Source: Cliona cf. orientalis
Lineage: Eukaryota > Porifera > Demospongiae > Clionaida > Clionaidae
Length of the DNA: 64,000 nt
Direction: 5' to 3'
Assembly (NCBI GenBank): GCA_963930775.1
Contig: OZ005695.1
Coordinates: 1,984,001 to 2,048,000, forward strand
How positions within the stretch are numbered: the first letter of the stretch is position 1; every line of letters starts with the position of its first letter. This document shows positions 3,849 through 62,100 of the stretch, piece after piece. The notes under the pieces were generated by a model. It did no database searches. It was not told the DNA's origin and was given only the letters and a program-made list of their open reading frames with translations. The translations under genes were made by a program, and so were the position numbers.

Positions 3849-3877
3849 ACGTATAGATCATAAAAAATATGCCGAGT

Positions 3878-31345: not shown

Positions 31346-31377
<32 letters not shown>

Positions 31378-36100: not shown

Positions 36101-39100
36101 ATGAGTATCCAGATGGTCAAGTGGAGACGTACAGATCACCAGGAACATTACTGCAGGAACTACTCCAAACACTTGCAACCATCAGTGCTTCTCACTTTAC
36201 AAGTGGTCAGCAGAGAGATTCTGAGGCAAAAATAAAACCCAAGGTTTTCTTTGTTGGTACACACAAAGACTGCCTACCAGAAAATAGTGCAGAAGAGATC
36301 ATCCAAAGGAAAGATAAACTACTTCAAAACTATGTAAGACAAACAGATCTATTTGATCACGGTTCTATTCAGTTTGCGGAGCATCCTAAGCAATTAATAT
36401 TTGCAATTAATAATCTTTCAGATGATGATGACGAATTTCAGAAAATACGATCAGCTGTACAGATCACTGTGGAAAAGGACGAATTTACAATCGAGTGTCC
36501 TTCATCATGGCTAATATTGAGCCTAATTCTCAGAGCAAAGCATAAATCTGATCAGGTTTTGACCTTTGACAAGTGTTTTAGCATCGCTTGGGAATGCGGG
36601 ATAGCTGATCCTAATGAATTAAAACAAGCTTTGTCATTCATTCACTCAAAGCTCGGTCTTGTGCGATATTATAATGTGAAAGACCTAAATGCATTTGTGG
36701 TAATAGATCCTCAGGTGCTTTTTGACAAAATCACAGATCTTCTTGTCAAAACCTTTACTGTTGAAAATGTTGATGTTAATGAAATAGAAGATTTTCATCA
36801 GAGAGGCATTATCCCTGTGGCAGCCATGCAAAAAATTAGTGTTAAGAGCAGTTCTGATTCACAGCTTCCATTTATATGGCTGACATATTTATTGAACTAC
36901 CTCAGAATAGCTGCATTCTTTACAGATAAAGATGGTGACAAATATTTTTTCCCATCAGCACTGTGCCATGCGCCAGAATCTCATTTTATCCTACCTCTTA
37001 ACAAACATTTATGGCCTTCATTGCTGGTTGGATTCAAAAGTGGCTTCTGCCCTCGTGGTATTCCAGGGGCACTGATTAAGTATCTCATGACAAATGAAAT
37101 GAAGTCAAAAAGAAGTTGGAATATTATTCCAAATAAAGTATTCAAAAATGAAGTTTCCTTTGCTATCCAGGCACATGGAAATATAACTCTGAGAATTCTA
37201 CCTACTCACTTGGAAATCAGTTATTACTCTGAAGCAGATTCAATGGAAGTATTGTCAGAAGAAGAGGATGAGCTAATGAAGAAAACCTGTGAAATGGCAT
37301 ATATGCAAATCAAGAAGGCCATGAGCACTATCACTAGTCAGTGCATAGAGTGCAGCTTTTTCTTTGGCTTTTACTGCACACTATCTACATGTCAAGCTCA
37401 TAGGCATCCAGCTCAACTTGAGTGGGATGGAAAAGATCCATTTAAGGTAAAATGTAAGGTTGCAAACAAACGTGGAAATCTGCCAGAGGGTTATGATATT
37501 TGGAACCTTCAAAAGATTCTGAAGAGAAAATCAAGTAATACACTCTGATAGCATAGCACTTGCAATTTTTATTTATTTGAACTCATTATACTCTTTTAGG
37601 AAAAATACAATTGGATAAAGTGATAGATGGTGATGACCATGGAGTTCCTAAGCACCTTGGTCAGATTGCAGATTCAATGACTGAGTGGGAAGGTCGGATT
37701 TCTGACGAACTCAAACTCACACCAGCTGATGTTGCAAGCATCCACACAAAGCACCCAAGAAATCTTAAGCTACAATCGTAAGACATCCATGTATTCAGTA
37801 ATGTTCATTCTGTATATCCAATTGTTCATCTAGCTAGCCCATTTTGTATGCACGAGTTTCATAAGTGGCTTTTACAACCATTCTGCACAGGAGAGAAGCT
37901 TTAGATATATGGAAGCGAAAGCTTGGTTCTGATGCTACCTACATGAGATTAATAAATGTCTTTGAACAAGCTGGCTTTCAAAATACTGCAGAAATCGTTA
38001 GAAGCATTGTGTGTGAAGATGAAAGTGAAGAAGATTCTAGTGATTATGATGAGCCTATACCCCAACCAGAGACGTATCCAAATGTACAAATATACCCTCT
38101 ACCATCACTCAAACACTCAAAACGTGTCTCTTCATGTGATGAATACGTACTGATAAACTCAGTCACTGCCAATATTCTTCCAAAAGGTGCATGAGCATTG
38201 CTAATAATAATGTAAGTATGATATAATATAGTTTTTAAACCAGGTCAAGTACATGATCAGAAAGTACTGGAGTCACATGATGTGTTTGTTGTACCCATGT
38301 TATCATCTAAGCATAAGGTGGGTGAAATTGATGTGCTCAAAATTTATGTCAGAGCAAAAGGTAACCACAATTTTATCCTTTATTTTGTAGCCAATAGCAG
38401 AAACTCCCGTCCCACGACCCAAAATAAAAAAGCCTCCAAATTATCCAATCTGTATTGGATTGTATGATTATTTTGCAAGAGAATCTCAAGATTTAAGCTT
38501 CATGAAAGGTGATTTGATGTACATTATCGATCATAAAGATGAGAGGTGGTATGCACGCAAGAAGGATGGTGGACAAGAGGGCTACATTCCCAGCAACCAT
38601 GTGACTGAGTATAGGAGTTACTTAAAGGCTGAAAAGTAAGTTAGGTGCCACATGTGCCTGGGTAAGTACATTTTGCTATCATTAGTGTAATGTTGTTATC
38701 CTATTTTAGCTTCATCCCAAGGCCACTCCCATGTATTCAATGATACATTCTCTTTCCCTCTCTCTCTTGTAGGTGGTTCATTGATGGAATCAACCGTGAG
38801 GATGCTGAGAAACAACTTATGTCCCCATTAAATAGTTACGGATCATATCTTATCCGAGAAAGTGAAAGTCACCGTACTCTTGGTTGTTATGCACTTTCTG
38901 TTCAAGACAGGGATCTAGTTCAGCACTATAAGATTTTTCAGTCAGTCAATCATGAATTTTATATCACTGAACACTGCAAGTTCAAGACTCTTCAAGATCT
39001 TGTAGCTCATTATCGATGGCAAGCTGATGGACTTTGTGTCAATCTCAGGAAGCCCTGCATCATCACTACTATTGACGCTTATGGACCCAAACCCGATGAT

Positions 39101-39967
39101 TCAGAATGGGAAACTGATAGACCTGAACCCGATGATTCAGAATGGGAAACTGATAGAAGTGGTATAACATTAGTTAAGAATCTCGAACTAATGTCTAATA
39201 GTTTAACTGAAGTGTGGAAAGGAATATGGAATAAGACCACACTGGTTGCAGTTAAGACACTCAAACCAAACCAAAATAATATGACTGTAGATGAATTTTT
39301 GCAATCAGCAAATCTGATGAAGAAATTACGACACCCACAACTTGTTCAACTCTATGCTCTTTGTTCAAAAGAAGAGCCTGTAATCATTATCACTGAGCTC
39401 ATGAATCATGGGAGTTTGCTCAATTATTTGCGTGATAACGGGAAATTAAAACTCCGCCAGCTGATTCACATGGCCGAACAAGTTTCATCAGGAATGACCT
39501 ACCTTGAGAAGCAGAATATCATTCACAGGAATTTATCAGCAAAGAATATTCAGGTTGGAAAAGACCTATTATGCAAAGTGGCTAACTTTGAACTAGCTCG
39601 AATAGTGGATAGAGACATCTATGAGGGTCAAGAAAAGGAAAAAATTGCTATTAAATGGATGGCACCAGAGGCTACCTTACACTACAGGTTCAGTGTCAAG
39701 TCAGATGTTTGGTCATTTGGGATTGTTCTCTATGAAATTATCACTTGTGGTAGAACACCCTATCCTGACATGACCAATGCTGAGGTGAAGCACCAAATAC
39801 AGCAAGGCTACCGTATGCCCCAACCATTAAATTGCGAATGTCCAGATAAGCTCTATGGCATCATGCTGAACTGCTGGCAAGTGGAGCCTGTAAACCGGCC
39901 CACCTTTGACACCCTCCAGCAAGAACTACTGAATTTTTTCGATCCTACTAGCAAGTGGAGCCTGTAA
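33181..39967 (+). CDS. Unit C: NACHT-LRR-Roc/COR-Death-SH3-SH2-pseudokinase gene, open copy
   Basis: Exons 33181-37534, 37600-37777, 37891-38186, 38244-38317, 38391-38635 and 38773-39967 add up to 2,113 residues without a break. The start MEEEISRIL is shared with unit E. Motifs: GEAAVGKT and LLIADGWEEL (NACHT), LRRs, GPGRSGKN, NTGGQ and VGTHKD (Roc-like GTPase), COR-like region, Cys/His module, Death (WEGRISDELKLTPADVASIH; REALDIWKRKLG), SH3 (GLYDYFARESQD), SH2 (SYGSYLIRESES) and kinase. The kinase keeps VAVKTLKP, but has HRN (39534-39542) and NFE (39584-39592) and Ser at the alpha-C Glu position, so it should be catalytically dead. An activation-loop Tyr (DIYEGQEKEK) survives. A 36-base repeat duplicates the SH2-kinase linker (PDDSEWETDR twice), and a 74-base duplication changed the C-terminus. 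Confidence 0.9.
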
Positions 39968-42420: not shown

Positions 42421-45400
42421 ATGGATGATGAAATTTCAAGTTGTTTGGTCTGTATCAAAGAAAGATATCGCAATGTAAGTTCTTACCACACGAAACAGTA
42501 TCCATGTCACTTGAAGACCGTTAATATACATGGATTGGAATTGTTGGAGTCGGTGTTAGAAAAGGAATCTGGCATCTCAGGAGAGGTCAGGCAGATCCGT
42601 ATACCATACAATCGCCTATTTGACCCAATATATGATGAAATAACATCAAAGCCGTCAAATAGTATGGCTCCTCGAAAAGTGATACTAATCCAAGGTGAAG
42701 CTGCCATGGGAAAAACGATGTTATGTATGTCAGTTGTGGAGGAATGGGCTAGTGGAAAGCTATTTCAGGGATTTCAACTTGTGCTTTTACTACCTCTCAG
42801 TTCCAGGAATGTAGCTTCAGCTAGTTCCCTTTCAGGGCTGCTCAATGTGCTGTATGCTGATCTCGAAGGTGATACTTGCTCTACAGTGGCCAAATACTTA
42901 ACCAAGAAAAAGAGTCACAATATTCTACTTATTGCTGATGGGTGGGAAGAGCTTCATGATTCCCAGTGCCAAGCAGGGTCATTCTTACAATCTCTTCTTT
43001 TTAGCAGCGACATCATACCCAATTCATCCATTACAGTTCTTATTACCTCTAGACCAGGCTGCCGCCAAGTTCAAATGTTAAATGTTATGCAGTCAGCTAA
43101 TGATCGTTTAATCACTTTGACTGGATTTGATAGAAGAGCCGTTGAATCCGTAATCCAGTCTGAGTTTGCTGGTGACTTAAGGAGAATCCGCTACCTCACA
43201 GCACAGCTGAATGATAACCCATTAGTTGCAAATGCGTGTAGTATTCCTCTCAATCTTGCTATAGTATGTCACGCTGACAATGCTGAACCCCTACCTGATA
43301 CCATGACAAAGTTGTATTCAAAGTTGATTTGGACACTTGCTTCTATTAGCATAACACATCCTCACGAAAATAACTTGCAATTTTCTAGCCATCATGATCT
43401 TCCTGAGGAGCTACAACAGTCATGGTGGCAAGTATGTGAACTAGCTTTCAGGAACTTTGAGAAGGGTCACAATATTATTTGCACTCCATTAGATGCAGCA
43501 TTTACTTCATCAAAATTAAAGGAAATCTCATATTTTGGTTTAATTAAGCCAATAGCAGAAACTGGAGACACACTATCCTTCTCTTTCATTCATCCTCGTA
43601 TTGAAGAGTATCTTGCCGCTCTACATCTTGCAAAGCAGCCAAAAGAAGCACAGCTTAAATTCATGCGTGAATTGGTAGCCAATGAAGAGTGCAGAATTAA
43701 AATGGGTATTTCATTCTGGCACTTTTTCGTCAGTAGCTACGCACATCAGGTAGCCAACTTGAATCCTGATGTTGCTGATCAAGTTTTGAAGACTTTATTA
43801 GCAGCCTATTGCACTACCAAACAGAAGTACTGCATGGACCTTTACCATCTGTCTTATGAAGCAAAGCATGATGTAGTCAATCAGAAAGTAGTCGAAGCTA
43901 TCAGCACCGTGGGTACTGGAGTTATAAGATTTGGTCATGCACATGATGCATACGATTTCAATTCCATGGTGTATGTGCTTCAAAATGTAACACAAGAGAG
44001 TGAAGTGGAGATCAACTTTCAAGACTGCAATCTGAGACCTGAATATGTAAATCACCTAGCAAATGCTTTGTGTGAAAAATCTAGCATTGTTCAAATCAAG
44101 GGGCTTAATCTGAGTGGAAACAGGCTCAGCAATTCTCTAGCGGTTGACTTCTTTAGGAAAGCTGCTGCTGCTCTTAAATCCTTAAAGGTTCTTATCCTCC
44201 GTAACTGTGATATTGGGACAACCTTGGATATCAAAGCCATACTATCTACATTAACACAGTCCACCTCTCCAACACTAACTCACTTTGATCTGTCATTTAA
44301 TCGGATATCAATTTCCTTCTTGCAAGTTCTGCAACAGCACCTTGAATATTATACAACATTTGAAAGTCTGCAAAATTTTAGCCTAAAGGGATCGCTAAAC
44401 AATGATGTGACAATAACCTTTTTATCAAATTTCAGTGATGCACTCTCAACTAATTGTAAACTTCTCCGACGACTTGACCTATCTGAAAACAATTTGGGTG
44501 AACCTGGAAATTCAGACCTATGCAAAGTGATTTCTCAGCTCCTTAGTCTTGGAAGAGACTTCAACTTGTGTTTAAATAACGAATATATGTCTGAGGTTCA
44601 CGATGAATTTGTATGTGTGATGGAAGAGTCAATAAAAAAGAAAGGAACAATAAATCATACTATTGCTCATGGAGTGATTGTTGGTCCTGGGCGCTCAGGT
44701 AAAAACACCTTGATGAGTCGTTTGATGGGAAATGGACCGCCCAAGTCTGATACTATTTCATCTAGTACTGGAGTATTGGAAAGCATAGTTAAAGTTGAAG
44801 TGAAAAAACTAAGTACAGTGGCTACTGCTGTTAGTAATTTAGAGTGGAAAAAGCTGCAGTATGATGAAGAGGCACTTGAGCTGATCATGACCACAGCAAG
44901 GCATCACTCTGCTACAACTACTAAATCAAAACCTGTTGTAACCAAGTACATCATTAAGGAGCAAATAGAAAGTCCTATAGTAACTAGTGCTAGGTTACCT
45001 ATTCCTTCTAAAAGCCTTCGTCCGAAACAGACAAAACATAAGATTGTGAAGCTCTTCAACAAACTAAAAAGATTTAAGGCACAAAAATCCAATCAAGATT
45101 CTGTGGGTAATGTTCAAGAAATAGAAAAGAGTGCAATCGTGTACACACCAGATGTTGAGCCTGTGAATATTTTTAAGCAGGCAGTGAAGCTACAAGGCAT
45201 GGATGCTCTACGAGAGCACCTTGAATCATCGTGGTCCCTTTACCTCACCAACACAGGGGGACAGATTGAGTTTCAGGAGCATCTTCCCCTCCTTATTTGT
45301 GGGCCATCAATCTTTTTTGTTACATTCCCTTTACATCATGATCTTGATAAGCCTTATGATGTCCGCTATGAGTATCCAGATGGTCGAGTGGAGACTTATA

Positions 45401-48400
45401 AATCACCAGGAACATTACTACAGGAACTACTCCAAACACTTGCAACCATCAGTGCTTCTCACTTCACAAGTGGTCAGCAAAGAGATTCTAAGGCAAGAGT
45501 AAAACCCAAAATTTTCTTTGTTGGTACACACAAAGATTGTCTACCAGGAAATGGTGCAGAAGAGATCATCCAAAGGAAGGATGAACTGCTTCAAAGTTGT
45601 GTAAGACAAACAGCTCTTTTTGATCAAGATGCAATTCAGTTTGCTAAGCATCCTAAACAGTTATTATTTGCAGTCAATAATCTTTCAGATAATGATGACG
45701 AATTTCAGAAGATACGATCAGCTGTACAGATAACTGTTGAAAGAGATGAGTTTACAATTGAGTGTCCTTCATCGTGGCTTATATTGAGCCTAATTCTCAG
45801 AGCAAAGCACAAATCTGATCAGGTTTTGACCTTTGATAAGTGCTTTAGCATTGCCCGGGAATGCGGGATATCTGATCACAAAGAGTTGATTCAAGCACTA
45901 TCATTCATTCATTCAAGGCTTGGACTTGTACGATATTTTGATGTGAAAGATCTGAATACTCTCGTGGTGATTGACCCTCAAATTCTGTTTGACAAGATCA
46001 CGGACCTCATAGTCAAGACGTTTACAGTTGAAAATGTTGGTGTTAAGAAAAATGAAGATTTTTGTCAGAGGGGCATCATTCCTGTGACAGTCATGCAAAA
46101 TATTAGTGATATAGATGAAAATGGTTCCGATTCACAGCTGCCATTTAAATGGTTGACAGATCTATTGAATTATCTCAGAATAGCTGCCTTATTTACAGAC
46201 AGAGATGGTGACAAATACTTCTTCCCATCAGCACTTTGCCATGCACCCAAATCTCATTGTAATCCACCTCACTCATATTTATGGCCTTCATTACTTGTTG
46301 GATTTAAGAGTGGTTTCTGCCCTCGCGGAATTCCAGGGGCACTGATCAAGTACCTTATGACAAATGAAATGAGGTCAAAAAGATGTTGGAATATTATTCC
46401 AAATAAAGTATTCAAAAATGAAGTTTACTTTGCTATCCAGGCATGTGGAAATATTAAACTGAGAATTCTACCGACTCACTTGGAAATCAGCTATTACTCT
46501 GAAGCAGATTCAACAGAAGAAGCACCTGAAGAAGACTCAAAAGAAGATGTGCTAATGAAGAAAACCTGTGAAATAGCATATATGCAAATCAAGAAGGCCA
46601 TGAGCATCGTCACTAGTCAGTGCATGGAGTGCAGCTACTTCTTTGGCTTTTACTGCACTCTATCTACATGTGAAGCTCATAGACATCCAGCTCAACTTGA
46701 ATGGGATGGAAAAGATCCATTTAAGGTAAAATGTAAGATTGCAAACAAACGTGGAAATCTACCAAAGGGCTACAAAATTTGGAATCTCCAAAAGAAACGA
46801 AAACCAGGTAATGCTATCTGACAATAACAATAGCATATTATTAGTTAAATAGCTATAATTTTGATCTTACTACATTCTTATAATAATACTATATATTATT
46901 ATTATAGGAAAAGCATATTATTAGTTAAATAGCTATAATTTTGATCTTACTACATTCTTATAATAATACTATAGGAAAAGCACAATTAGATAAAGTGATT
47001 GATGGTGATGGCCATGGAGCTCTCAAGCACCTTGGTCGAATTGCTGATTCAATGGCTGAGTGGGAAGGTCGGATTTCTGATGAACTCAAACTCACACCAG
47101 CTGATGTTGCAAGCATCCACACAAAGCACCCAAGGAATCTCAAGCTACAATCGTAAGACATCCATTCTGCATGACGTTATTTATTAATTTTAGCCAAATC
47201 CATGCAAGGCACAATCATATTATATTATATTCAACTAGAGCTCTGTAGAGCACATACCCCGCACATTATGTAGCCACTGTGGCAACATTAACACTCCACT
47301 GCCGAGCTGTTTTATGACTTGATGACCCTTTCCAACACTGAGCTTGAGCATGCGCAGTCGTACGTGCCACCAGTAGAGTGGGTGTGGTCAATAAACCACA
47401 CATGCCACTAGTCTCATGCAGCCACTGCCAGACTCTTACCCCTCAAGGGAGTCTGGCTGCACGAGACTAACATGCCACAGGCATGCTGAACAGTTTTGTA
47501 GCGCTTAGTAGTAAGCCTTTTTGAGCAATTTGAAGCGCGTATAAACCAGGATGTCTACCGATCGGTACTTCTCTATTCCTACAGGAGAGAAGCTTTATAC
47601 ATATGGAAACGAAGGCTTGGTTCCAAAGCTACCTATCGAAGATTGATGAATATCTTTGAAAGAGCTGACTTTCAAAATTATGCAGAAATTGTCAGAAGCA
47701 TTATATTATGTGAAGATGAAAGTGATATAGATGATTCTAGTGATTATGAAGATTTAGAGCCTATCCCCCAACCAGAGACATATCCAAATGTACAATCAAA
47801 CCCCTCACCATCACCCAAACACTCAAGACGTATCTCATCATGTGATGAATTTTTATTGATAAATCCAGCCACTGCTAACAATTTTCCTAAAGGTGAGTAT
47901 AGACGACTTAAGGCGCGACCGTTTAGCGCATTAAGGTACCATTAAATTGCGTGGGCGTGAGCATGAGGATTGGCTAATTCAATTAGCGAATCGTGAAGGG
48001 GCGTGGCCGAAGAGGCCATACGAGTGCTTTTGGTCGAAGGTGGGCGTGTCCAGAATCAGCCAGGGATGATTATGCGCGTGTAATTAGCGACCGGAAGTAG
48101 CCCCTGAAGAAAACACCGGTAATTGCCCACATCAAAGCAAGATCAAAGCATTCTTTCTTAACTATTAACCGCAACGACTTCTTATACACTAAGTAGAAAT
48201 TATTACCAACTAATTAAACACTTTAAAACACTAAGTAGAAAAAAAAAAAAGATTTAAATAATTAAATAAATAAATAATTAAATAATCTAATTCATGGGTG
48301 GTTTGGGAGTACTTGGGGAGATAATTTTTACATGGGCACGCTGAATGGGTCGAAACTAGAGGTTTGACCGGACAGATTTTTGATTCACACCTTACAATTA

Positions 48401-51400
48401 AAGTTACGGCCCTTTGAAGTTTCCCCATATGTTTATACAGGGAAGCCATGCGTTTGCAATGTTTCCGCCCACGCGCTACGTGAGGGGCGGGGCCACGCGC
48501 GCACATAAACGTGACGACCTTTACAACAAAATTGAAATTTAGGCTGCCTGCTTGCATTGTATGGTTCCACTATGCACCCAGCTCAACTATATGGTGGTTT
48601 TTGGACAATTTTTTTTTCTGCTTAGTGTTCAGGTCGCCTTGTTAAACACTAAGTAGAAAAAAATATAGAAAAATAATTCACAGGGGGGTTGAGAGCACCT
48701 GGGTGCATAATTTTTTTTATGGGCACGCAGAATTGGTCAAAACTAGAGATTTGACCTTAGGGAATTTTGATTCACGCCTTAGCATTAAAGTTACGGCCCT
48801 TTGAAGTTTCCCCATATGTTTGTATAGGGAAGCCATGCGTTTGCAATGTTTCCGCCCACGCGCTACGTGAGGGGCAGGGCCACGCGCGCACATAAACGTG
48901 ATGACCTTTACCAATTTTTTGACGAAATTGCAATTTAGGCGGCCTGCTTGCATTGTATGGTTCTACTATGCGTCCAGCTCGATTATATGGTGGTTTTTGG
49001 ACAATTTTTTTTTTTGCTTAGTAGTGTTCTGGTCTCCTTGTTAAACACTACTAAGTAGAAATTACACACTAAGTAGAAAAAAAGACACAAAAATAATTCA
49101 TGGAGGGATTGGGAGCACTTGGGAACGTAATTTTTTCATGGGCACGCAGAATGGGTCGAAAAACGAGATTTGACATGAGAAAATTTTGATTCACGCCTTA
49201 GAATTAAAGTTACGGCCCTTTAAAGTTTACCCATATGTTTGTACAGCGAAGCCATGTGTTTGCAATGTTTTGAGTCCCGGTGTGCGTTATTTAGAAAATC
49301 GCTAGTCCAGTACATGCATAGGCTACCATGGAGCTGGTATTGTATCCAGAGACTTGCTGAATGGATGAGGAAGCAGTCACAACAGTAACTCTCCCGTTTT
49401 TGCTGAGAGGTAGGTGGGGTGATACAGCTATAGTTTTACATTTTGTATGTGTGGATCAGTGTGTGGGAAAATACATCTAATTGAGCTCTAGAAACATAAC
49501 TAACTAAAATTGTTTTGTGCTTCTCCCCTAGCCTTGTGTGTGTGCTGTGGTGATCTTGAGTACTAGTACAAAGTAACGTGTTACAGTGGCCACAGGTACT
49601 GAACCTCTTCCCCTAGCCTTGTGTGTGTGCTGTGGTGATCTTGAGTACTAGTAGGAAGTAACGTATTGCAGCGGCCACTGGTACTGAACCTCTCAACACT
49701 GATCATATACTCTGTGTTTTCTAGGCTCTATTAGGAGCATAGATGGCCTTGTTTCCGATTGTATGGGCATCCAGCTCAACTATGTGGTGGTTTCTGGATT
49801 ACAGTAATACTCGGGATGACTATAATAATATTACTATACTGTAGCGTGTGAATATTATATACATGCATGTTTCTAATTATGTGGAACTTTTTGTGCTTAG
49901 TGTGCATGGTAGCTCCTTAGATGATTTCCTTAGATGATTTCCAGCAAGCTCTAACTGCGCCTGCAGCGCAGTTAGAGCGGGTGGAAATCACCTGAGGTAC
50001 TTGGTATTGTTACTATGGTATACCAATGCTAAATCGTACAGGCACTGTACATTGATTAAATTATTGTGGGCTAGGGTAGCTGTTTTGAACATGACTTGAC
50101 TATCTCCGGGATGGCATGCTCTACTCTACTGAAGAATGGTTTTAGTGACATTAGATGTTGTTACCATAGTAATATATACCAAATGTACATAAAGTATTGC
50201 AGTGTATGTATGTGCATGGTAAACAATCAATGTAAAGTAAGCCTAAGTGCATATTAATTTGTGCGAACCTATACAATGCAGGTACGTATACTTATGTGCC
50301 GCAGTTTTTTTTTCTGCTTAGTGTGCATGGTAGCTTGAAAAAAAAAAAGATTTTTAATTAATTAATTCAGGGGGGAACTGGGAGCACTTGGGGACATAAT
50401 TTTTGCACCGGCGCGCAGAATGGATCAAATGCAGAGATTTGACCTTCAGGAATTTTGATTCACGCCTTAGAATCGAAGTTACGGCCCTTTGAAGTTTCCC
50501 CATATGTTTGTACAGGGAAGCCATGCGTTTGCAATGTTTCCGCCCACGCGCTACGTGAGGGGCGGGGCCAGGCGCGCACATATACGTGACGACCATTACC
50601 AACTTTTTGACAAAATTAAAATTTAGGCTGCCTGCTTGCATTGTATGATTCCACTATGCACCCAGCTCGATTATATGGTGCTTTATGGACAATTTTTTCT
50701 GCTTAGTGTTCAGGTCGTCTTGAACTAATTACACACTAAGTAGAAAAAAAAAAAAGATTTTAATTATTGGGACTCTGGGGAGCGGTTGGGACCGTAAGTT
50801 TTATATGGGCACGCAGAATGGCTCAAATTACGAACTTTGATCGAGAGAATTTTTTTGATTCACACTCTAGAATTAAAGTTATGGCTCTTTGAAGTTTGTA
50901 TAGGAAGCCATTCACTTGCAATGTTTACCAAAAAATTTTTACGGGCACGCGAAAAAATTTTACGGGCGCGCGGCGTACGTTGATGACCCTTTACCGAAGA
51001 TTGTGCATATTGCTGTTTGGGTGCCTGCTTGCATTGTATGGCTCTACTACGCATCCAGCTCGACTGTGTGGTGCTTTTCGGACCATTTTTTTTAGCCACA
51101 ACAGTAACTCTCCCGTTTTTGCTGAGAGGTAAGTGGGGTAATACAGCTATAGTTTATGTATGTGTGGATGTGTGGGACAGTACATCTAGTTGAGAAACAT
51201 AACTAAATTTGTTGTGTGCTTTTCCCCTAGCCTTGTGTGTGTGCTGTGGTGATCTTGAGTACTAGTACGAAGTGCTTGAACGTGTTGCAGGGGCCACAAG
51301 TACTGAACCTCTTCCCCTAGCCTTGTGTGTGTGCTGTGGTGATCTTGATTACTAGTAGGAAGTAACGTATTGCAGTGGCCACTGGTACTGAACTAGTCTC

Positions 51401-54400
51401 GCGCGCCAGCCCCTCCTACCCAAAGAGGGAGAAAGGGTCTGGTCAAATGCCTATAGGGCCCGTGTCCCCGCGCACTGTATAGTGCGCGCCAATCAGATGC
51501 ACGGAATAAAGTCACATGACAGCGCGGGCATGAAAGGAATGCAAATTAATGATTGTGCGCATGCGCGATCGTGCCCCAGTACAGTGGAATGTTAATTTAA
51601 CTTTACGTTTCTTATTCACGCACACCAGAAATACGTGACGTCATGCATTCCTCGGCGACACAGGTCCTATACGCATTTGGCCAGACCCCTTCTCTCCGCG
51701 TGCGTGAAAGGGGGCTGGGGACGAGACTAGTACTGAACCTCAACACTGATCATATACTCTGAGTTTCTAGGCTCTATTAGGAGCATAGACGGCCTTGTTT
51801 CCGATTGTATGGGCATCCAGCTCAACTATGTGGTGGTTTCTGGACAATATTATTTTTACAGTAATACTCGGGATGACTATAATATTATACTGTAGTGTGT
51901 GAATATTATATACATGCATGCATGTTTCTGATTATGTGGCACTTTTATCTGCTTAATGTGCATGGTAGCTCCTTAGATGATTTCCAACAAGCTCTAACTG
52001 CGCCGCAGGCGCAGTTAGAGCGGGTGGAAATCATCTAAGGTACTTGGTATTGTTACTATGGTATACCAATGCTAAATCGTACAGCCACTGTACACTGATT
52101 AAATTATTGTGGGCTAGGGTAGCTGTTTTGAACATGACTTGACTATGGATGCTCTACTGAAGAATAGACATTAGATGTTGTTACCATAGTAATATATACC
52201 AAATGTACATAAAGTATTGCAGTGTATGTATCTACATCGTAAACGATCAATATGAATAAGCCTAAGTGTGTATTAATTTGTGCGAACCTATACAATGCAG
52301 GTACGTTGACTTATGTGCCGCAGTTTTTTTTTTTTTCTGCTTAGTGTGCACGGTAGCTTGAACTAAGTAGAAAAAACAAAATAAATTAATTCACGGGGGG
52401 TTTGGGAGCATCTGGGGAGATAATTTTTTCATGGGCACGCAGAATGGGTTGAAATTAGAGATTTGACCTTGGGGAATTTTGATTCATATCTTAGAATGCC
52501 CTTTGAAGTATCCCCATACGTTTGTATAGGAAGCCATGCATTTGCAATGTTTTCCGCCCACGCGCTACGTGAGGGGCGTGGCTACGCGCGCACAATAACG
52601 TGACGACCTTTACCCACTTTTGTCAAAATTGAAGTTTAGGCTGCCTGCTTACATTGCATGGGTCTATTGTGCATCCAGCTCAACTATGGTAGTTCATGGA
52701 CTGTTTTTTTTCTGCTTAGTTGGTCCGCTTCTTGCAAAAAAAAGAATTTATATAATTAATTAATGTTTGGGGGGTTGGGGAGCACTTAGGGAGATGATTT
52801 TTACATGGGCACGCAGAATGGGCCGAAACTAGAGATTTGACCTTGGGGAATTTTGATTCACGCCTTAGAATTAAAGTTATAGCCCTTTGAAGTTATCCCA
52901 TATGTTTGTATAGGATTTGCAATGTTTTCCGCCCACGCGCTATGTGAAGGGCGGGGTCACGCGCGCACATGAACGTGACGACCATTACCCGCTTTTGTCA
53001 AAATAATAATTAATGTATAGGCTGCCTGCTTGCATTGTATGGCTCTACTATGCATCCGGCTCAACTATGTGGTGGTTTCGGACATTTTTTTTCTGCTTAG
53101 TGTTCTGGTCTCCTTGAAAAAAAAAAGATTTATATAATTAATTAATGTTTGGGGGGGTTGGGAGCACTTGGGGAGATAATTTTTACATGGGCATGCAGAA
53201 TGGGTCGAAACTAGAGATTTGACCCTGGGGAATTTTGATTCACACCTTAGAATTAAAGTTACGGCCCTTTGAAGTTACCCCATATGTTTGTATAGGAAGC
53301 CATGCATTTGCAATGTTTTCCGCCCACGCGCTACGTGAGGGGCGGGGCCACGCGCGCACATTAACGTGACGACCATTACCCACTTTGATCAAAATTGATG
53401 TATAAGCTGCCTGCTTGCATTGTATGGCTCTACTATGCATCCAGCTCAACTATCTGGCGGTTTTCGAACAATTTTTTTTGTTCTGGTCTCCTTGAAATTA
53501 CACACTAAGTAGAAAAAAAAAAAGATTTTAATTATTGGGACTCTGGGGAGCGGTTGGGACCGTAAATTTTATATGGGCACGCAGAATGGCTCAAATTACG
53601 AACTTTGATCGAGAGACTTTTTTGATTCATGCCCTAGAATTAAAGTTATGGCTCTTTGAAGTTTGTATAGGAAGCCATTCACTTGCAATATTTGCCAAAA
53701 AATTTTTACGGGCACGTGGAATAAATTTTACGGGCGCGCGGGGTACGTTGACGACCCTTTACCAAACATTGTATTTATTGCTGTTTGGGTGCCTGCTTGC
53801 ATTGTATGGCTCTACTATGCATCCAGCTTGACTGTGTGGTGGTTTTCGGACCATTTTTTCTGCTTAGTGTGTGGTCCCCTTGAAAAAAAAAAAAGCTTAT
53901 TAGGCCTAATTAAGCATATGGGCGTGTTCCTGGCACTGTGTGGAGTGTGTGCGTGTGCGTTAATGCAGGTTTTATTGTTTCCGATTGGGCGTGGCTTCAC
54001 GGGCCAGTGCTTGGATATCGGCGCCTGGGACTTGGCCCCGGCGATAGGTGGGCGTGTCCCGGAAGCGGTGGTGACCTTTGAACCCCGCGAGGAGGCTTTG
54101 GGGGCGTGGCAGGAGGTCAAAGGTGAGGCCATGTCAGTTAATGAGGTACTGTACGCCGGTGCGATCGAGGGGACCGTACGGCTGGACGGAAGCTGACGAT
54201 GGTTTGAAGCGGATGTGGTTGTGATGACGTGTCGTTACCCCGCCCACACAGGAAATGAGGTGAGCTCTTGTGTGGGCGGTGTGGCAGAACGGCCTTGAAG
54301 TGTTTGTGTGTGTTTTGGCCTTGAGGAAGCTGTGTGTTTTAATTGGGATTGATTGTGGGCTTCCGGTGGACATCCGGTGGCAAGTCGGCACTTGATTGAG

Positions 54401-57255
54401 AATGGTGGTCCTTGAGGCACAGGGTGGTGCTGTTTTAGGCGTGGTCTGGCCCCTCCCTTCCGGCTCGGCTTCCGGTCCATTGAGGATGTTAAATGAACAC
54501 TTCCGGCTCTAGCAGCCACACCCCTGAGACCTGGGCAATTAAAAGGGCGTGGTCACACAGCATGCACCTCACTTATGACTTTGATGTGGTTTAGGTGTCA
54601 TATTCCCCACCTCACGCCCACGCAATTTAATGGTACCTTAACTGCATAGCTAGCAACCATTGCTATCCGCCATTTTGGTGGTCAAGCGGCAATACCGCTC
54701 GTACTGCCAGTCTGCCAGTCGAAGCTCGCAAGATCGATCATGAACAAGAAGTACACCGACAGTTTGTCTAAAGCAGCCCGAGAGCGTTACATCTGGAAGC
54801 TTCAATGCATTTATCGTATCGTAGGCGAGCTGAGAGACAAGAAATACACTCGCGATCGTACGCTGTATAAAGCTATGGCAGCGTTGACCACCAACATGGC
54901 AGATAGCAACGGTTGCTATGCAGTTAATGTGCTAAACGGTCACATGCGCCTAAGTCGTCTATTCTGTCTTTTCAAACAATTGGTGATATTATTATTACCC
55001 GATAGATCAAGTACATAGTCAGAAAATACTGGATTCTCGTGATGTATCTGTTGTACCCATGTTATCGTCTAAGCACAAGGTGAGTTTTTCTTCTGACTTA
55101 GTTTGGCTACAGTATATATAACACGAAAATAAAATATGCTTTAATAATAATATTGTAGCTAACAACTGCAGCTCCTGTCCCACCACCCAAAACAGAGATA
55201 CTTCTAACTTATCCAACCTATATCGGATTGTATGATTATGACACACAAGTTGATAATGACTTGGGCTTCAAAAAAGGTGATTTAATGTACATTATCAGCA
55301 CTGATGAAGGTGACTGGTGGTGGGCTCGCTTGAAGGATAGTGGAGAAGAGGGCTACATTCCCAACGGTTATGTGACTGAGTACTGGAATGGTTTATATAC
55401 TGAAAAGTGAGTTGAATGGGCTATGGAGGGGAGTACAGCTTTATACTGAATTTGCTCAATGACATATTATGCATGTAGCTATAATGGGGTATCGAAAAGA
55501 TGATTGGTTCTGTCTCCGTTGTTGTCACCTAACAGTGTCAAAGAGCTTAGCTACCTCATTTTACTTCAAGTATTATACTCTGTTTCAATCAGCCATGCTT
55601 TTTTTCAGGGGCGGAGAAATAGGGGGGGGGGGGGGGGACAGGGCCCCCCCCCCCCCCCCCCCCCCATTTTATCACATGCCCATGCTATAAAATGACAGCA
55701 CATAGTTCTCAGTAGAAATAGCTACTAATTTAAAATCAGTTCAAAAACTCCTGCCAGAATGCATCAGAAACACTCTCAGAGAGTCGAAATTTCCAAAAAT
55801 TTCTAGGGGAAGAATGCCCCCAGACCCCCCTAGATGGGCTGTGAGCATATGCCCACAGCCTAATTGTTGTCACAGTACATAGTCAAAGGTCTGAGCCCCC
55901 CCCCCCCCCCCCCCCCCCCCCACTTTTGCTACCTGTTCTCCGCCCTTGTTTTTGTCACCTATATACACACACCAAAGAAAGCATCCATACTCATCAGACC
56001 CCTTTCCATCACATAGGGTGGAGTCAGGGGCTGGGCATATTATATACAAGAGCTTGACTATTAATTATTAGCTATTAATCTCTAAAATCCTCTTTTCTCC
56101 TTTCTTTCTTGTAGATGGTTCTTTGGCCAAATTGAACGTGAAGATGCTGAGAAACAACTCATGTCCCCACTAAATAGTTATGGGTCTTATCTTGTCCGAG
56201 TTCAAAGTGAAAGTACTCCTGAAAGTTATGCACTCTCTGTTCGAGATAGGGATCAGGTGAAGCACTACAAGATTCATCACTCAGAAAAATTTATAGAAGA
56301 ATTCTTTATCACCGTGAATTCCACATTCAAAACTGTCCAAGGTCTTGTAACCCATTATCAACAGCATGCTGATGGACTTTGTGTCAATCTCAGGAAGCCT
56401 TGTAAGAAGACCCCAATAGTTGATATTTTAGGACAGTTTGTTGATCAATGGCAAATTCCCAGAGGAGAAATAAGACTCGTTAGGGAAATAATGGATACTC
56501 AATTTGTTACAGTGTCAGAGGGTATACGGAAGGATAGTTTACCAGTTGCAGTTAAGGTACTTAAACCAAATAGAATAACTGCACAGGATTTCTTGCAAGC
56601 AGCAAACCTGACAAAGAAACTCCACCACCCAAACATTGTTCGTTTTTATGGTCTTTGTTCAAAGGAAGAGCCTGTGTATGTTATTACTGAACTCATGAAG
56701 CATGGAAACTTGCTAGATTACTTGCATGGTGAGGGGAGGTCACTAAAACTTCCCCAGCTGATTGATATAGCTGCACAAGTGGCATCAGGAATGGCCTACC
56801 TTGAGGAGAAGAATGTCGTTCACCGCAATTTAAAAGCAAGGAACATCCAGGTTGGAGAAGACATGCTATGCAAAGTGGCTAACTTTGAACTAGCTCAAGT
56901 AACGGATGAAGCTAGTGTGCAAAGAACATGGGAAAAATTTGCTATAAAATGGATAGCACCAGAAGCCTTATACTACAGGTTCAGCACCAAGTCTGATGTT
57001 TGGTCATTTGGGGTTGTTCTTTGTGAAATCATCACTTATGGTAGCATGCCCTATCCTGGCATGACCAGTGGTGAGGTGCTTGCCAAAACAGAGCGAGGCT
57101 ACCGCATGCCCCCACCACCTGGATGTCCAGGAAAACTCTATGACATGATGCTCAATTGCTGGCGAGAGTATCCTAAAGACCGACCTACATTTGCAATCCT
57201 GCAGAGGGAACTAATTAGTGACATTTTCACTGGTGATAGGGCAAATGCTAGTTAA
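42421..57255 (+). CDS. Unit D: intact NACHT-LRR-Roc/COR-Death-SH3-SH2-pseudokinase gene
   Basis: Exons 42421-46807, 46975-47152, 47585-47892, 55006-55079, 55159-55406 and 56115-57255 give 2,111 residues with correct phases and no stop. Exon 1 (1-1462): NACHT (GEAAMGKT, LLIADGWEEL, TSRPG), LRRs, Roc-like GTPase (GPGRSGKN, NTGGQ, VGTHKD), COR-like region with FFPSALCHAPK, and a CMECSYFFGFYC module. Exons 2-3: Death domain then an acidic linker (DIDDSSDYEDLEPIPQPE). Exon 4: short linker (PMLSSKHK). Exon 5: PVPPPK and SH3 (GLYDYDTQ, WWWARLKDSGEEGYIP). Exon 6: SH2 (SYGSYLVR) and kinase with VAVKVLKP, HRN (56821-56829), NFE (56881-56889), no glycine loop and no activation-loop Tyr. Intron 3 is 7.1 kb because of nested transposons; elsewhere it is under 70 bases. 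Probably a cytosolic scaffold-type sensor (inference). Confidence 0.9.
46833..46974 (+). repeat. 80-bp-period tandem duplication with duplicated splice acceptor (unit D intron 1)
   Basis: GCATATTATTAGTTAAATAG starts at 46833 and 46913, and both copies run to a TATAG/GAAAAGCA acceptor. The downstream one (exon at 46975) keeps the frame. The upstream one (exon at 46908) would run into a stop after a few codons. Confidence 0.85.
47409..47469. mobile_element. 61-bp palindromic element with perfect 9-bp target duplication
   Basis: Starts TAGTCTCATGCAGCC and ends GGCTGCACGAGACTA, with ACATGCCAC on both sides (47400-47408 and 47470-47478). Nine-base duplications are typical of Mutator-like elements (family knowledge). 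The TAGTCTC ends equal those of the 336-bp element at 51394. Confidence 0.75.
48186..49290. repeat. Module array, left block of copy 4
   Basis: Modules at about 48229-48640, 48646-49040 and 49066-49290. The third is cut off in the middle at GCAATGTTTT where the 1-kb spacer region begins. Each carries CATATGTTTG and, except the truncated one, GCGCTACGTGAGGGGC. Confidence 0.7.
49310..50335. repeat. Internal ~1-kb segment of copy 4, first occurrence
   Basis: From CAACAGTAACTCTCCCGTTT to the TGCCGCAGTTTTTTTTTCTG border. It includes two tandem units of TAGCCTTGTGTGTGTGCTGT (about 49530 and 49615) and a hairpin CTCTAACTGCGC/GCGCAGTTAGAG at about 49950-49977. It is repeated at 51096-52340. No gene was seen in it. 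Confidence 0.75.
50338..51090. repeat. Module array, middle block of copy 4
   Basis: Two modules (about 50338-50725 and 50735-51090) lie between the two 1-kb segments. The second is the variant type with CGGGCGCGCGGCGTACGTTG. Confidence 0.7.
51096..52340. repeat. Internal ~1-kb segment of copy 4, second occurrence
   Basis: Same order of strings as 49310-50335, including the two TAGCCTTGTGTGTGTGCTGT units and the CTCTAACTGCGC hairpin (about 51991-52021), with a 336-bp element inserted at 51394. So the duplication came first and the insertion later. Confidence 0.75.
51394..51729. mobile_element. 336-bp element with ~80-bp inverted repeats and 9-bp target duplication
   Basis: Flanked by GTACTGAAC at 51385-51393 and 51730-51738. 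The empty site is visible in the sister segment near 49680-49690. The arms share TAGTCTCG, CAGCCCC, TCTGG, CAAATGC, TATAGG and GTGTC in the same order when inverted. Long arms with a 9-bp duplication are Mutator-like. It has no transposase. Confidence 0.8.
52345..53885. repeat. Module array, right block of copy 4
   Basis: Four consecutive modules (about 52360-52735, 52735-53118, 53118-53495 and 53500-53885). The first three are the GCGTGGGCGG-type and the last is the CGGGCGCGCGG variant that also adjoins the GC-rich arm in copy 1 orientation. Neighbouring modules are more alike than distant ones, as expected for unequal exchange. Confidence 0.7.
53918..54196 (+). CDS. 92-residue frame conserved in TTAA element (copy 4)
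   Basis: Third version of the frame at 540-818 and 13611-13889, with the same start, length and stop. It differs at about ten positions (for example GAWDLAPAIGGRVPEAVV). The hydrophobic N-terminus is kept. Upstream the frame stays open to 53663, but that part is module sequence. Confidence 0.25.
   Translation: MGVFLALCGVCACALMQVLLFPIGRGFTGQCLDIGAWDLAPAIGGRVPEAVVTFEPREEALGAWQEVKGEAMSVNEVLYAGAIEGTVRLDGS
54740..54957 (+). pseudogene. Coding scrap in the outer MITE
   Basis: The frame begins MNKKYTDSLSKAARERYIWK and runs to the inverted repeat. It aligns with the scrap in the MITE at 16415-16739 (shared pattern Y..xLS.xA..RY..KLQ). It is likely the 5' end of a transposase or captured gene retained by internal deletion. 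The parent family is not recognised. Confidence 0.4.
55606..55948. mobile_element. hAT-like MITE in unit D intron 5 with long G and C runs
   Basis: CAGGGGCGGAGAA at the left and TTCTCCGCCCTTG at the right, flanked by TTTTT (55601-55605 and 55949-55953). Unit A lacks it at the matching intron position. It contains a G-run (about 55622-55637) and two C-runs (about 55646-55666 and 55899-55921). Confidence 0.75.
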
Positions 57256-59163: not shown

Positions 59164-62100
59164 ATGGAGGAAGACATTTCAAGTATTTTGGCTGCTATCA
59201 AAGAAAGGAGTCGCAACGTATGTACTAGCCATATGAAGCACTATGTATGGAATTTAAAGAATGTTTATGTGGATGAATTAGAACTATCAGAGCTAGTATT
59301 AAAAAGGAGCCAGACACAGAAGAGGGTAGTGATGAGAAGCAGGTTCGTGTACCTTACAGGAGCTTATTTAGTACACAATTGACTAAACCAAACGCGGTCC
59401 ATAAAACAATTCTCATACAAGGTGAAGCTGCTGTGGGAAAGACTATGCTATGCTTGTCAGTGGTGGAGGAATGGGCTAGTGGAAAATGGTTTCAGGAATT
59501 TCAGTTCGTCCTTTTACTACCCCTTAGTTCCAGGAATATAGCTTCAGCTAGTTCCCTTTCAGGGCTGCTCAATGTGCTGTATGCTGATTTCAAACCAGGT
59601 ACTAGCTCCAAAGCGGCTAGCTACTTGAAGAGGAATGGGCAACACAACATTCTTCTTATAGCTGATGGGTGGGAGGAGCTTCAGGCCTCACAGTGCCAAA
59701 CAGGGTCATTCTTATACTCTCTTCTCTTTAGCAGTGACATCATACCTACTTCATCCACTACGGTTCTTATTACCTCCAGACCAGGCTGCATTGAAACAAG
59801 TGTTATGCAGTCCACAATTGATCGGTTAATTACTTTGACCGGATTTGACAGAAAAGCAATTGAGTCTATAGTCCAGTCAGAATTTGCAGGTGATTTTAAG
59901 AGTATCCGCTATCTCACAGCACAGCTGAATGATAATCCATTAATAGCTAGTGCATGTGGAACTCCTCTTAATCTTGCTATAGTTTGCAATCTATATCGAG
60001 CTAGTGGTGCTGAACCCCTACCAGATACCATGACGAAATTGTATTCAAAGCTGATTTGGACACTTGCTTCAGCTAGCGTAGAAAGTAGTGATTTTCATGA
60101 AAGTAGCTTGTCTAGCCATCATGATCTTCCTGAGGAGCTGCAGCAGTCATGGTGGCAAGTTTGTGAACTAGCTTTCAGGAATGTTGAGAAATGTCACAGC
60201 ACTTCTTCTTCATCAGATTCTACAGCACATACTTCATCAAGAATTTTGCATTTTGGCCTAACTAAGCCAATAGCAGAAACCGGAGACACTCTATCACCCT
60301 CATTCGTTCATCCTAACCTTGAAGAGTATCTTGCTGCTCTGCATCTTGCAAAGCAGGCAGAAGAAGTACAGAATAAATTTATACGTGAATTTGTGGCCAA
60401 TGAATGCAAAAGTAAAATGGCTATTACATTCTGGCACTTTTTTGTCAGTAACTATGCACATCAGGTAGCCAACTTGAATCCTGATGTTGTTGATCAAATT
60501 TTGAAGATTTTATTAGCAGCCTATTACACTACCAAACAAGAGTACTACATGGATCTCTGCCATTTGTCATATGAAGCAAAGCATGATGTAGTCAATCAGA
60601 AGGTAGTCGAAGCTATCAGCATCGTGGGTACTGGAGTATTAAGGTTTGGTCAGTCATGTGATATGTATGACTTCAATTCCATAGTGTATGTGCTCCAAAA
60701 TGTAACACAAAAGAGTAAAGTGGAGATCAACTTTCAAGACTGCAATCTAAGACCCGAACACATAAATCACCTGGCAAATGTTCTGTGTGAAAAATCTAGC
60801 ATTGTTCAAATGAATGGTCTTAATCTAAGCGGTAACAGGCTCAGTAATTCACTAGCAGTTGATTTCTTTAGCAAAGGTGCTGCTGCTCTTAAATCCTTAA
60901 AGGTCCTTATCCTCCGTAACTGTGACATTGGGACAACCTTGGATATCAAAGCCATACTATCTGCATTAACAGAGTCCACTTCTCCAACACTGACTCACTT
61001 TGATCTATCATTCAATCGCATATCAATTTCTTTCTTACAAGTTCTGCAACAGCATCTTGAATCTTATGCCACATTTGAAAGCCTACAAAGTTTAGGCCTA
61101 AAGGGATCATTAAACAATGATGTGACAACAAGTTTCTTGGCAAATTTTAGTGATGCACTTTCATCGAAATGTAAACATCTTAGACGACTTGACCTGTCGG
61201 AAAACTATTTGGGTGAACCTGGAAATCCAGATTTAAGTAAAATGATTTCACAACTCCTTGATCTTAGAAGAGACTTCAACCTGTGTTTAAACGATGAGTA
61301 CATGTCTGAGGTTCACAATGAATTTGTATGTGTTATGGAAGAATTGATAAAAAAGAAAGGAACAATAAATCAAACTATTGCTCATGGAGTGATTGTTGGT
61401 CCTGGGCGCTCAGGTAAAAACACCTTGATGAGTCGTTTGATGGGAAATGGACCACCCAAGTCCGATACTGTTTCACCTAGTACTGGAGTATTGGAAAACA
61501 TTGTTAAAGTTGAAGTTAAAAAGCTAAGCACAGTTGCCGCTGCTGTTAATAATTTAGAATGGATAAAGCTGCAATATGATGAAGAGGCACTTGAGCTGAT
61601 CATGACCACAGCAAGGCATCACTCTGCTACAACCACTATATCAAAACCGATTGTAACCAAGTACATCATTAAGGAGCAAACAGAAAGCACTATGATAACT
61701 AGCACTAAGTCACCTATTCCTTCTAAACCCCTTCAAGTTGGTGGTCCTAAACAGACAAAATATAAGATTATGGAATTTTTCAAGAAATTAAGGAGATTTA
61801 AAACACGAAAATTTCATCAAGATCCTGTGGGTAAAGTTCAAGAAAGAGAAAAGAGTGCAATTGTGTACACACCAGATGTTGAGCCTGTGGATATATTTAA
61901 ACAGGCAGTGAAGCTACGAGGCATGGATGCTCTACAAGAGCACCTTGAATCATCGTGGTCCCTATACCTCACCAATACAGGGGGACAGATTGAATTTCAG
62001 GAACATCTTCCCCTCCTTGTTTGTGGGCCATCAATCTTTTTTATTACATTCCCCTAACATCATGATCTTGATAAGCCATATGATGTTCGTTATGAGTATC

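What the first reader, a model, noticed from the sequence alone, without database searches (positions are those of the whole stretch)
42421..57255. A single gene joins NLR, ROCO and Src-like modules: NACHT-LRR-Roc/COR-Death-SH3-SH2-kinase
Unit D reads without a break through six exons with matching phases, and the same exon chain recurs in B and C (and E as far as the window goes). It combines the sensor half of an NLR, a second GTPase of the Roc type, a Death domain and the SH3-SH2-kinase half of a Src protein. I know of separate animal families with NACHT-LRR-Death, LRR-Roc-COR-kinase (LRRK) and SH3-SH2-kinase (Src), but not of one described with all of them. It would be a direct link from an NLR-type switch to phosphotyrosine signalling.
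Basis: partly seen in the sequence, partly recalled or inferred. Interest (0 to 1): 0.95.

Follow-up and report, generated by a model that had tools for sequence, protein, structure and literature searches.

The report
NLR fused to a dead Src kinase
An animal genome (perhaps a sponge) carries a tandem family of immune-sensor genes whose tail is a Src-type SH3-SH2-kinase unit that appears to have lost its kinase activity, so it looks more like a docking or bait module on an immune switch than a new enzyme.

Summary
The exon chain is real. Unit D joins six exons (42421-57255) into an open 2,111-codon frame; unit C gives 2,113 codons with the same intron phases. Intron 3, where a promoter for a separate Src-like gene could hide in D (7.1 kb), is 65, 69 and 57 bp in A, B and C, so one gene is far likelier than two; no transcript was available. 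Profiles support NACHT, LRR, COR-A, Death, SH3, SH2 and a tyrosine-kinase-type domain. Roc is not confirmed. Most SH2 pocket residues are kept. NACHT-LRR-COR-Death is constrained (omega about 0.3); SH3 (1.2) and kinase lobes (0.6-0.8) evolve faster. Best reading: an NLR with an integrated, catalytically dead Src module as docking site or bait, NACHT as switch, Death as output. Related chimaeras (sponge NLR with COR, anemone TIR/Death/Roc-COR/kinase/SH3, plant NLR-kinase fusions) are known, so this is a new variant.

The parts
42421..46807 (+). Unit D exon 1: start ATG, N-terminal 80 aa without a recognised domain of its own, NACHT, helical region, LRR, Roc-like region, COR
   Evidence: start supported because clear similarity among B, C, D, E begins at the ATG
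42679..43170 (+). NACHT domain (residues 87-250), Walker A GEAAMGKT, Walker B LLIADGWEE, sensor-1 LITSRP present (motif names recalled)
   Evidence: Pfam NACHT 8.7e-20; closest solved structures NLRP3; motifs in B, C, D, E
44008..44577 (+). Leucine-rich repeats (about residues 530-719)
   Evidence: Pfam LRR passes the curated cut-off in B (LRR_1) and C (LRR_6), below it in D; NLRP1 LRR matches E 0.011-0.012
44653..45750 (+). Roc-like region with altered G motifs: GPGRSGKN (44683), NTGGQ (45250), THKD (45526), long insert between G1 and G3
   Evidence: motif order and position only; no Pfam Roc hit: inconclusive
45766..46062 (+). COR-A domain (residues 1116-1214)
   Evidence: Pfam COR-A 33.6 bits in D, 37.0 in B, 30.6 in C; cut-off 35.3
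46975..47152 (+). Unit D exon 2: N-terminal half of Death domain
   Evidence: Death 4.8e-9 when exons 2+3 joined
47585..47892 (+). Unit D exon 3: C-terminal half of Death domain plus linker
47893..55005 (+). Unit D intron 3, 7113 bp, repeat-rich; 57, 69 and 65 bp in C, B and A
55006..55079 (+). Unit D exon 4 (74 bp linker exon, same length in A, B, C)
55159..55406 (+). Unit D exon 5: SH3 domain
   Evidence: Pfam SH3_1 1.3e-14
56115..57255 (+). Unit D exon 6: SH2 plus Src-type pseudokinase and stop
   Evidence: SH2 4.2e-20, PK_Tyr_Ser-Thr 8e-81; Src chain 2ptk 7e-106; residue table
56473..57213 (+). Pseudokinase domain (VAVK kept; HRN, NFE, no loop glycines, no helix-C Glu)
33181..39967 (+). 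Unit C, intact paralogue, 2,113 aa, exons 33181-37534, 37600-37777, 37891-38186, 38244-38317, 38391-38635, 38773-39967; the more compact intact copy and best evidence for one gene
21482..28271 (+). Unit B, same chain, frame broken inside SH2 in exon 6
6366..8974 (+). Unit A, exons 3-6 only in the window: 6366-6673, 6739-6812, 6906-7156, 7837-8974
59164..64000 (+). Unit E, exons 1-2 and start of exon 3, with one frameshift and one in-frame stop at 62055

Best explanation
A tandem family of NLR genes into which a Src-type SH3-SH2-kinase cassette was built behind a NACHT-LRR-COR-Death protein. Shown: six-exon chain, domain order, loss of kinase residues, slower front and faster SH3/kinase. Inferred: one mRNA and one protein. 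Proposed mechanism: the Src-like tail does not phosphorylate. Its SH3 and SH2 pockets, and perhaps the surface of the dead kinase, are the docking or bait end that engages phosphotyrosine or proline-rich partners, or microbial proteins aimed at Src. Engagement releases the NACHT ATPase to oligomerise, with COR helping dimerisation. The clustered Death domains then recruit Death adaptors and caspases.
For: Single chain: open frames of 2,111 and 2,113 codons, identical phases, intron 3 of 57-69 bp in three of four copies, frame-preserving indels. Switch intact: NACHT motifs in 4 of 4 copies B, C, D, E. Tail not catalytic: DFG Asp to Asn and Gly to Glu 4/4, helix-C Glu lost 4/4, three loop glycines lost 4/4, HRD Asp lost 2/4. 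Tail still a folded adaptor: SH2 FLVR Arg, His and Lys kept in A, C, D; 0 internal stops in exon 6 of A, C, D, where random drift of 125 or 175 substitutions leaves none with P 0.011 or 0.003 (observed A-D 128 of 1132 and C-D 302 of 1126 differences). Tail is the faster end: ML omega exon 1 0.30, Death 0.34, SH2 0.36, against N-lobe 0.58, C-lobe 0.83, SH3 1.18; LRR 0.17 for C-D. SH3 variation sits in the ligand loops: 12 of 13 RT and n-Src loop sites vary, 12 of 39 elsewhere. Engineered precedent: a DED chimaera with PTB or SH2 that redirects tyrosine-kinase signalling to apoptosis is mentioned in PMC2575513 (passage).
Against: No transcript, protein or relative was available. SH3-loop change is not significantly above neutral (18 nonsynonymous, 2 synonymous, P 0.125), and SH3 loops vary in SH3 families generally (recalled), so relaxed constraint explains part of the pattern; absence of stops in SH3 alone is not telling (P 0.18). 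The contrast is not clean: exon 3 with its linker has omega 0.39-0.79, exon 4 0.36-0.57, the helical region after NACHT 0.45. B (broken in SH2, where the pocket Lys also reads Gly) and E (stop, frameshift) suggest the cassette or whole copies are dispensable. B and C have no AATAAA or ATTAAA within 600 bp after the stop. Ligand, Death partner and immune role are untested. Some kinases with altered DFG keep weak activity (recalled).
Confidence: 0.45

Rival explanations
1. Two genes in tandem pairs: an NLR-COR-Death gene and a Src-like gene, transcribed separately.
For: In D the halves are 7.1 kb apart, with 5 AATAAA and 15 ATTAAA in intron 3; B intron 4, D intron 2 and D intron 4 hold one AATAAA each. 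Front and back have different histories (first 1.6 kb of exon 1 B=D at 219 of 1513 sites; exon 6 B=C at 153 of 1103). No transcript seen.
Against: Intron 3 is 57-69 bp in A, B, C; no in-frame Met in the SH3 exon before LYDY, the nearest lying in exon 4 (B, C, D); shared phases in B, C, D; no AATAAA or ATTAAA in introns 1-3 of B and C.
Confidence: 0.08
2. Active NLR-linked tyrosine kinase: NACHT oligomerisation switches on Src-like phosphorylation.
For: Kinase domain is 0.51-0.54 identical to Src, with beta-3 Lys, HRD His/Arg, catalytic-loop Asn and APE Glu kept in 4 of 4.
Against: DFG Asp and Gly, helix-C Glu and loop glycines missing in 4 of 4, HRD Asp missing in the two intact copies; kinase C-lobe omega 0.83, not distinguishable from 1.
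Confidence: 0.05
3. Relic tail: the Src cassette was gained, lost its job and is decaying under relaxed constraint; the working protein is NACHT-LRR-COR-Death.
For: SH3 omega 1.18 and C-lobe 0.83 are not distinguishable from 1; B is frame-broken in SH2; HRD Asp lost in C and D.
Against: No internal stop and only in-frame indels in A, C, D exon 6; SH2 omega 0.36 differs from 1 (2 x lnL difference 12.4) and the four-copy kinase alignment 0.73 differs modestly (5.8); structural kinase residues kept 4 of 4.
Confidence: 0.27
4. Scaffold or dominant negative: the dead Src module titrates SH3/SH2 ligands or regulates true Src kinases, and the NLR half only controls when it is exposed.
For: Most SH2 pocket residues and the SH3 core are kept while catalytic residues are lost.
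Against: Does not by itself explain faster SH3/kinase change against a more constrained NLR half.
Confidence: 0.15

Closest known systems
Sponge NLRs, Dysidea avara repertoire (PMC12909245; passages and section 3.3 seen)
   Same: NACHT-LRR core; the Figure 2 legend lists COR among the domains of the NLR architectures, so NLR with COR in a sponge is already in print
   Different: SH2 and SH3 do not occur in that paper's main text; 'kinase' occurs twice, and the shown passage with it is the KIX abbreviation. Where those NLRs carry CARD or Death it is N-terminal; here Death follows COR
Actiniarian Novel Gene 3 (PMC5094078; section 11 and passages seen)
   Different: has TIR; no NACHT, LRR or SH2 is mentioned for it in the section read
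Roco proteins with a C-terminal Death domain (figure-legend passage of PMC6337361; that this is DAPK is recalled)
   Same: Death domain C-terminal to Roc-COR
   Different: that member lacks LRR; no NACHT or SH3-SH2 and a different kinase at a different place (recalled)
Src family and sponge Src-Aque1 family (PMC8662651 passages)
   Same: SH3-SH2-kinase order; exon 6 best match is Src
   Different: catalytic residues lost; preceded by some 1,650 residues of NLR; whether Src-Aque1 genes include such fusions could not be checked
Plant NLRs with integrated kinase domains (PMC5819176, PMC9528084; passages seen)
   Same: an NLR with an appended kinase domain, proposed to derive from effector targets
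   Different: plant NLR, different kingdom; convergent if the same principle applies

Membership tests
NLR (NACHT-LRR) | NACHT ATPase domain | tested here: met
   Pfam 8.7e-20, 1.3e-17, 2.4e-20 in D, C, B; NLRP3 closest structure
NLR (NACHT-LRR) | LRR C-terminal to NACHT | tested here: met
   above cut-off in B and C, below in D; NLRP1 LRR matches E 0.011-0.012
NLR (NACHT-LRR) | N-terminal CARD, PYD or Death effector domain | tested here: not met
   first 80 residues give no Pfam domain of their own; Death is C-terminal. In Dysidea 81 of 126 NLRs are of the class without CARD or Death
Roco | COR domain | tested here: met
   COR-A 37.0 bits in B (cut-off 35.3); below it in D (33.6) and C (30.6). 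The only 4 PDB sequences matched up to E 5 by the Roc-COR profile match over the COR part, best E 0.091, not significant
Roco | Roc GTPase domain | tested here: inconclusive
   no Pfam Roc at E up to 10 in 2 pieces covering the region; altered motifs in order; structure prediction uninformative
LRRK | LRR-Roc-COR followed directly by an LRRK-type kinase (recalled) | tested here: not met
   Death, SH3 and SH2 intervene; best kinase matches are Src
Src family kinase | SH3-SH2-tyrosine kinase order | tested here: met
Src family kinase | catalytic residues (glycine loop, helix-C Glu, HRD Asp, DFG) | tested here: not met
   DFG, helix-C Glu and loop glycines lost in 4 of 4; HRD Asp lost in 2 of 4
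Src family kinase | N-terminal myristoylated SH4 and C-terminal regulatory tyrosine (recalled) | tested here: not met
   cassette is internal; tails of the intact copies C and D hold no Tyr, tails of A and B do
NLR with integrated decoy | extra domain fused to an NLR | tested here: met
   (genomic DNA only)
NLR with integrated decoy | extra domain binds a pathogen effector that targets its free relative | not testable with these tools
   needs binding experiments

The most novel reading that the evidence does not exclude
An animal NLR whose variable, ligand-facing end is not the LRR but an integrated, catalytically dead Src module: an animal counterpart of plant NLR integrated decoys that guards the Src/phosphotyrosine pathway, with hypervariable SH3 loops on a conserved NACHT-LRR-COR-Death chassis and cassette exchange between tandem copies.
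Probability: 0.22. Interest if true: 0.9.

Novelty: new variant of a known kind. Interest (0 to 1): 0.62.

Why it matters
In vertebrates many NLRs signal through N-terminal CARD or PYD adaptors (recalled). A germline fusion of an NLR with Death and a Src-type SH3-SH2-pseudokinase would be a natural protein in which a phosphotyrosine reader and a death-fold output sit on one ATPase switch. If the tail is bait, it would give animals the integrated-decoy principle known from plants and make it directly testable: the fast-changing SH3 loops say where to look for ligands. If it is only a scaffold or relic, it is still a clear case of domain gain followed by loss of catalysis in a tandem immune cluster.

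Tried and rejected
Rejected: active kinase; LRRK membership; two genes. Roc by profile failed. Structure prediction of the Roc-COR region gave mean pLDDT 30 and of the SH2-kinase exon 33.5; since even a clear Src-type SH2-kinase failed with a four-row alignment, both are uninformative and no fold search was run. Scans for relatives, each with two short peptide patterns: exon 1 in genome contigs (0 of 25 candidates) and viral contigs (0 of 39), the Roc-COR part in viral contigs (0 of 12), exon 6 in genome contigs (1 of 68, a 27%-identical stretch in a bacterial MAG, not pursued). NCBIfam gave nothing for exon 1 and eight bacterial kinase models far below their cut-offs for exon 6. Pfam on ten other ORFs gave one C2 match and one sub-threshold match. 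Literature: ten searches (in 17, 33, 47 and 81 the listing showed only part of the papers found) turned up no NLR with an SH3-SH2-kinase module in what I saw; the library lacks most subscription papers, supplements were not open to me, and the 2014 Amphimedon NLR paper is not held, so this is weak evidence of absence.

An earlier SH3 test included extra positions picked after seeing the alignment (17 of 18 against 7 of 34); the report uses only the RT and n-Src loops, whose boundaries are recalled from Src.

Full report
What was checked. The finding claims one gene at 42421-57255 coding NACHT-LRR-Roc/COR-Death-SH3-SH2-kinase, with the same exon chain in neighbouring units. I rebuilt the models from the sequence. 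D has exons 42421-46807, 46975-47152, 47585-47892, 55006-55079, 55159-55406 and 56115-57255: 2,111 codons, no internal stop, GT-AG introns of 167, 432, 7113, 79 and 708 bp in phases 1, 2, 1, 0, 2. C has the same chain with introns of 65, 113, 57, 73 and 137 bp and 2,113 codons without an internal stop. B has the same chain with introns of 66-112 bp, but its exon 6 loses frame inside SH2. E shows exon 1, exon 2 and the start of exon 3, with a 1-nt frameshift and a stop at 62055. A shows exons 3-6, open when joined; tblastn found nothing of exons 1-2 upstream of it in the window.

More than chance. Apart from one 1-nt gap in E and an end-of-alignment artefact, all gaps in the exon-1 alignment of B, C, D and E are multiples of 3; so are all 19 gaps in the exon-6 alignment of A, C and D. 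B-C identity is 0.79-0.94 in exons and 0.55-0.69 in introns. Clear similarity of all four copies around the start of exon 1 begins at the ATG. Exon 1 omega is 0.30, and omega = 1 is worse by 128 log-likelihood units.

One gene or two. In D the halves are separated by a 7.1 kb repeat-rich intron, so D alone would leave the question open. The other copies nearly close it: intron 3 is 57 bp in C, 69 bp in B and 65 bp in A, which leaves little room for a promoter; the SH3 exon has no in-frame Met before LYDY and exon 4 has one (B, C, D); the phases agree. Against: B and C show no AATAAA or ATTAAA in the 600 bp after the stop, A and D do, and B intron 4 holds one AATAAA. A transcript is still needed.

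Domains. Pfam finds NACHT (8.7e-20), COR-A (33.6 bits in D, 37.0 in B, 30.6 in C; cut-off 35.3), LRR (above cut-off in B and C only), Death (4.8e-9 in D once exons 2 and 3 are joined), SH3 (1.3e-14), SH2 (4.2e-20) and a tyrosine-kinase-type domain (8e-81); the joined D protein shows them in that order, LRR and COR-A below cut-off. Exon 6 is closest to Src (2ptk, 7e-106); NACHT-LRR is closest to NLRP3 (4e-9). Roc is not confirmed: no Pfam hit in two pieces at E up to 10. Motifs in the right order exist, but the P-loop reads GPGRSGKN and the DxxG site NTGGQ in B, C, D and E. By general knowledge of G proteins (recalled) both changes would weaken Mg-nucleotide binding. COR is supported; its Roc partner is at best an altered G domain.

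The kinase is a predicted pseudokinase. Against Src 2ptk (residue roles recalled): three loop glycines lost in 4 of 4 copies, helix-C Glu lost in 4 of 4, DFG Asp to Asn and Gly to Glu in 4 of 4, HRD Asp to Asn in C and D; beta-3 Lys, HRD His/Arg, catalytic-loop Asn, APE Glu and F-helix Asp kept in 4 of 4; the activation-loop Tyr kept in B and C only. SH2 pocket: FLVR Arg, His and Lys kept in A, C and D; the helix-A Arg kept in C and D, His in A. In B, read before its frame break, the FLVR Arg and His are kept and the Lys position reads Gly. In SH3 most positions outside the loops are invariant (27 of 39). The tail therefore looks like a folded adaptor without catalysis.

Tempo. Maximum-likelihood omega: exon 1 0.30 (B, C, D; 1431 codons), Death 0.34 (102), SH2 0.36 (A, C, D; 91), kinase N-lobe 0.58 (86), C-lobe 0.83 (174), kinase in A-D 0.73 (280), SH3 1.18 (81). 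SH3 and C-lobe are not distinguishable from 1; the four-copy kinase set differs modestly (2 x lnL difference 5.8). Counting estimates give the same picture for exon 1 (0.25-0.28), SH3 (1.04-1.27) and exon 6 or its kinase part (0.52-0.78), but also faster stretches in front: exon 3 with linker 0.39-0.79, exon 4 0.36-0.57, the region after NACHT 0.45; the LRR in C-D is 0.17. So the usual recognition part of an NLR is conserved here and the Src tail is the faster end. It is not simply rotting: random drift of 125 or 175 substitutions would leave no stop in exon 6 with probability 0.011 or 0.003; for SH3 alone the same test is uninformative (0.18). In SH3, 12 of 13 RT and n-Src loop sites vary against 12 of 39 elsewhere, and 6 of 1640 placements reach the observed nonsynonymous count. 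Against the bait reading: 18 nonsynonymous to 2 synonymous changes in the loops do not exceed neutrality significantly (P 0.125), loops vary in SH3 domains generally, and four copies are few.

Shuffling. The first 1.6 kb of exon 1 pairs B with D (219 sites against 77 and 47), while exon 5 (38 against 21 and 11) and exon 6 (153 against 100 and 101) pair B with C; A pairs with D in the SH3 and kinase trees. Exon 1 is itself mosaic after about 1.6 kb. Front and back have different histories, which fits exchange between tandem copies. The duplicated block also holds the tail of an upstream C2-domain gene: the stretch before C has copies before B (85% over 748 columns) and D (87% over 180).

Mechanism. 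I place the Src tail at the input: SH3 and SH2 dock on phosphotyrosine or proline-rich partners or on microbial proteins aimed at Src; NACHT is the switch; COR helps pairing; Death is the output. Only the anatomy and rates are shown; binding, oligomerisation and output are inferred. An engineered DED chimaera with a PTB or SH2 domain that redirects tyrosine-kinase signalling to apoptosis is mentioned in PMC2575513 (passage). Relic tail and scaffold are the main rivals.

Known relatives. COR is listed among NLR architectures of Dysidea avara (PMC12909245). Sea anemones have a TIR, Death, Roc/COR, kinase, SH3 protein (PMC5094078). Amphimedon Death/TRADD-N proteins can carry SH3-LRR, kinase or SH2 domains (PMC8195603 passages). 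A Roco protein with a C-terminal Death domain and no LRR is described in PMC6337361 (legend passage; DAPK by recall). Plants fuse kinases to NLRs (PMC5819176, PMC9528084 passages). I found no description of the full set in ten searches of an open-licence library (listed in Tried and rejected). Hence: new variant of a known kind.

Limits. The species is unidentified; 'sponge' is not tested. No transcripts, no relatives, and uninformative structure models. The frame breaks in B and E could be real or sequencing errors.

Noticed in passing
27266-27290 (unit B exon 6): Reading frame breaks inside SH2; the downstream kinase frame stays open and keeps the HRD Asp. Real disruption or sequence error cannot be told.
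   Followed up: partly
59300-62057 (unit E exon 1): One 1-nt frameshift and one in-frame stop at 62055 in an otherwise open exon: likely pseudogene or sequence errors.
   Followed up: partly
21482-25889, 33181-37534, 42421-46807, 59164-63560: Exon 1 falls into two N-terminal classes (B,D against C,E) for about 1.6 kb and becomes mosaic afterwards, which suggests gene conversion between tandem copies.
   Followed up: yes
1-6365: No tblastn match to exon 1 or exon 2 upstream of unit A's exons 3-6, so A is either truncated or its front lies outside the window.
   Followed up: partly
30169-31828, 19000-20000, 41545-41723: The tail of a C2-domain gene (Pfam C2 1.1e-4) lies upstream of unit C; copies lie upstream of B (85-94%) and, as a fragment, of D (87%), so the duplicated block is larger than the NLR gene.
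   Followed up: partly
12797-13476 and 48262-53479: A repeat family of about 380-bp units, partly tandem (52395-53479, 2.8 copies), is shared between the A-B spacer and D intron 3.
   Followed up: no
54650-55015: ORF of 122 aa mostly inside D intron 3, running into exon 4, with a sub-threshold Mor match (0.0044); possibly part of a transposable element.
   Followed up: no
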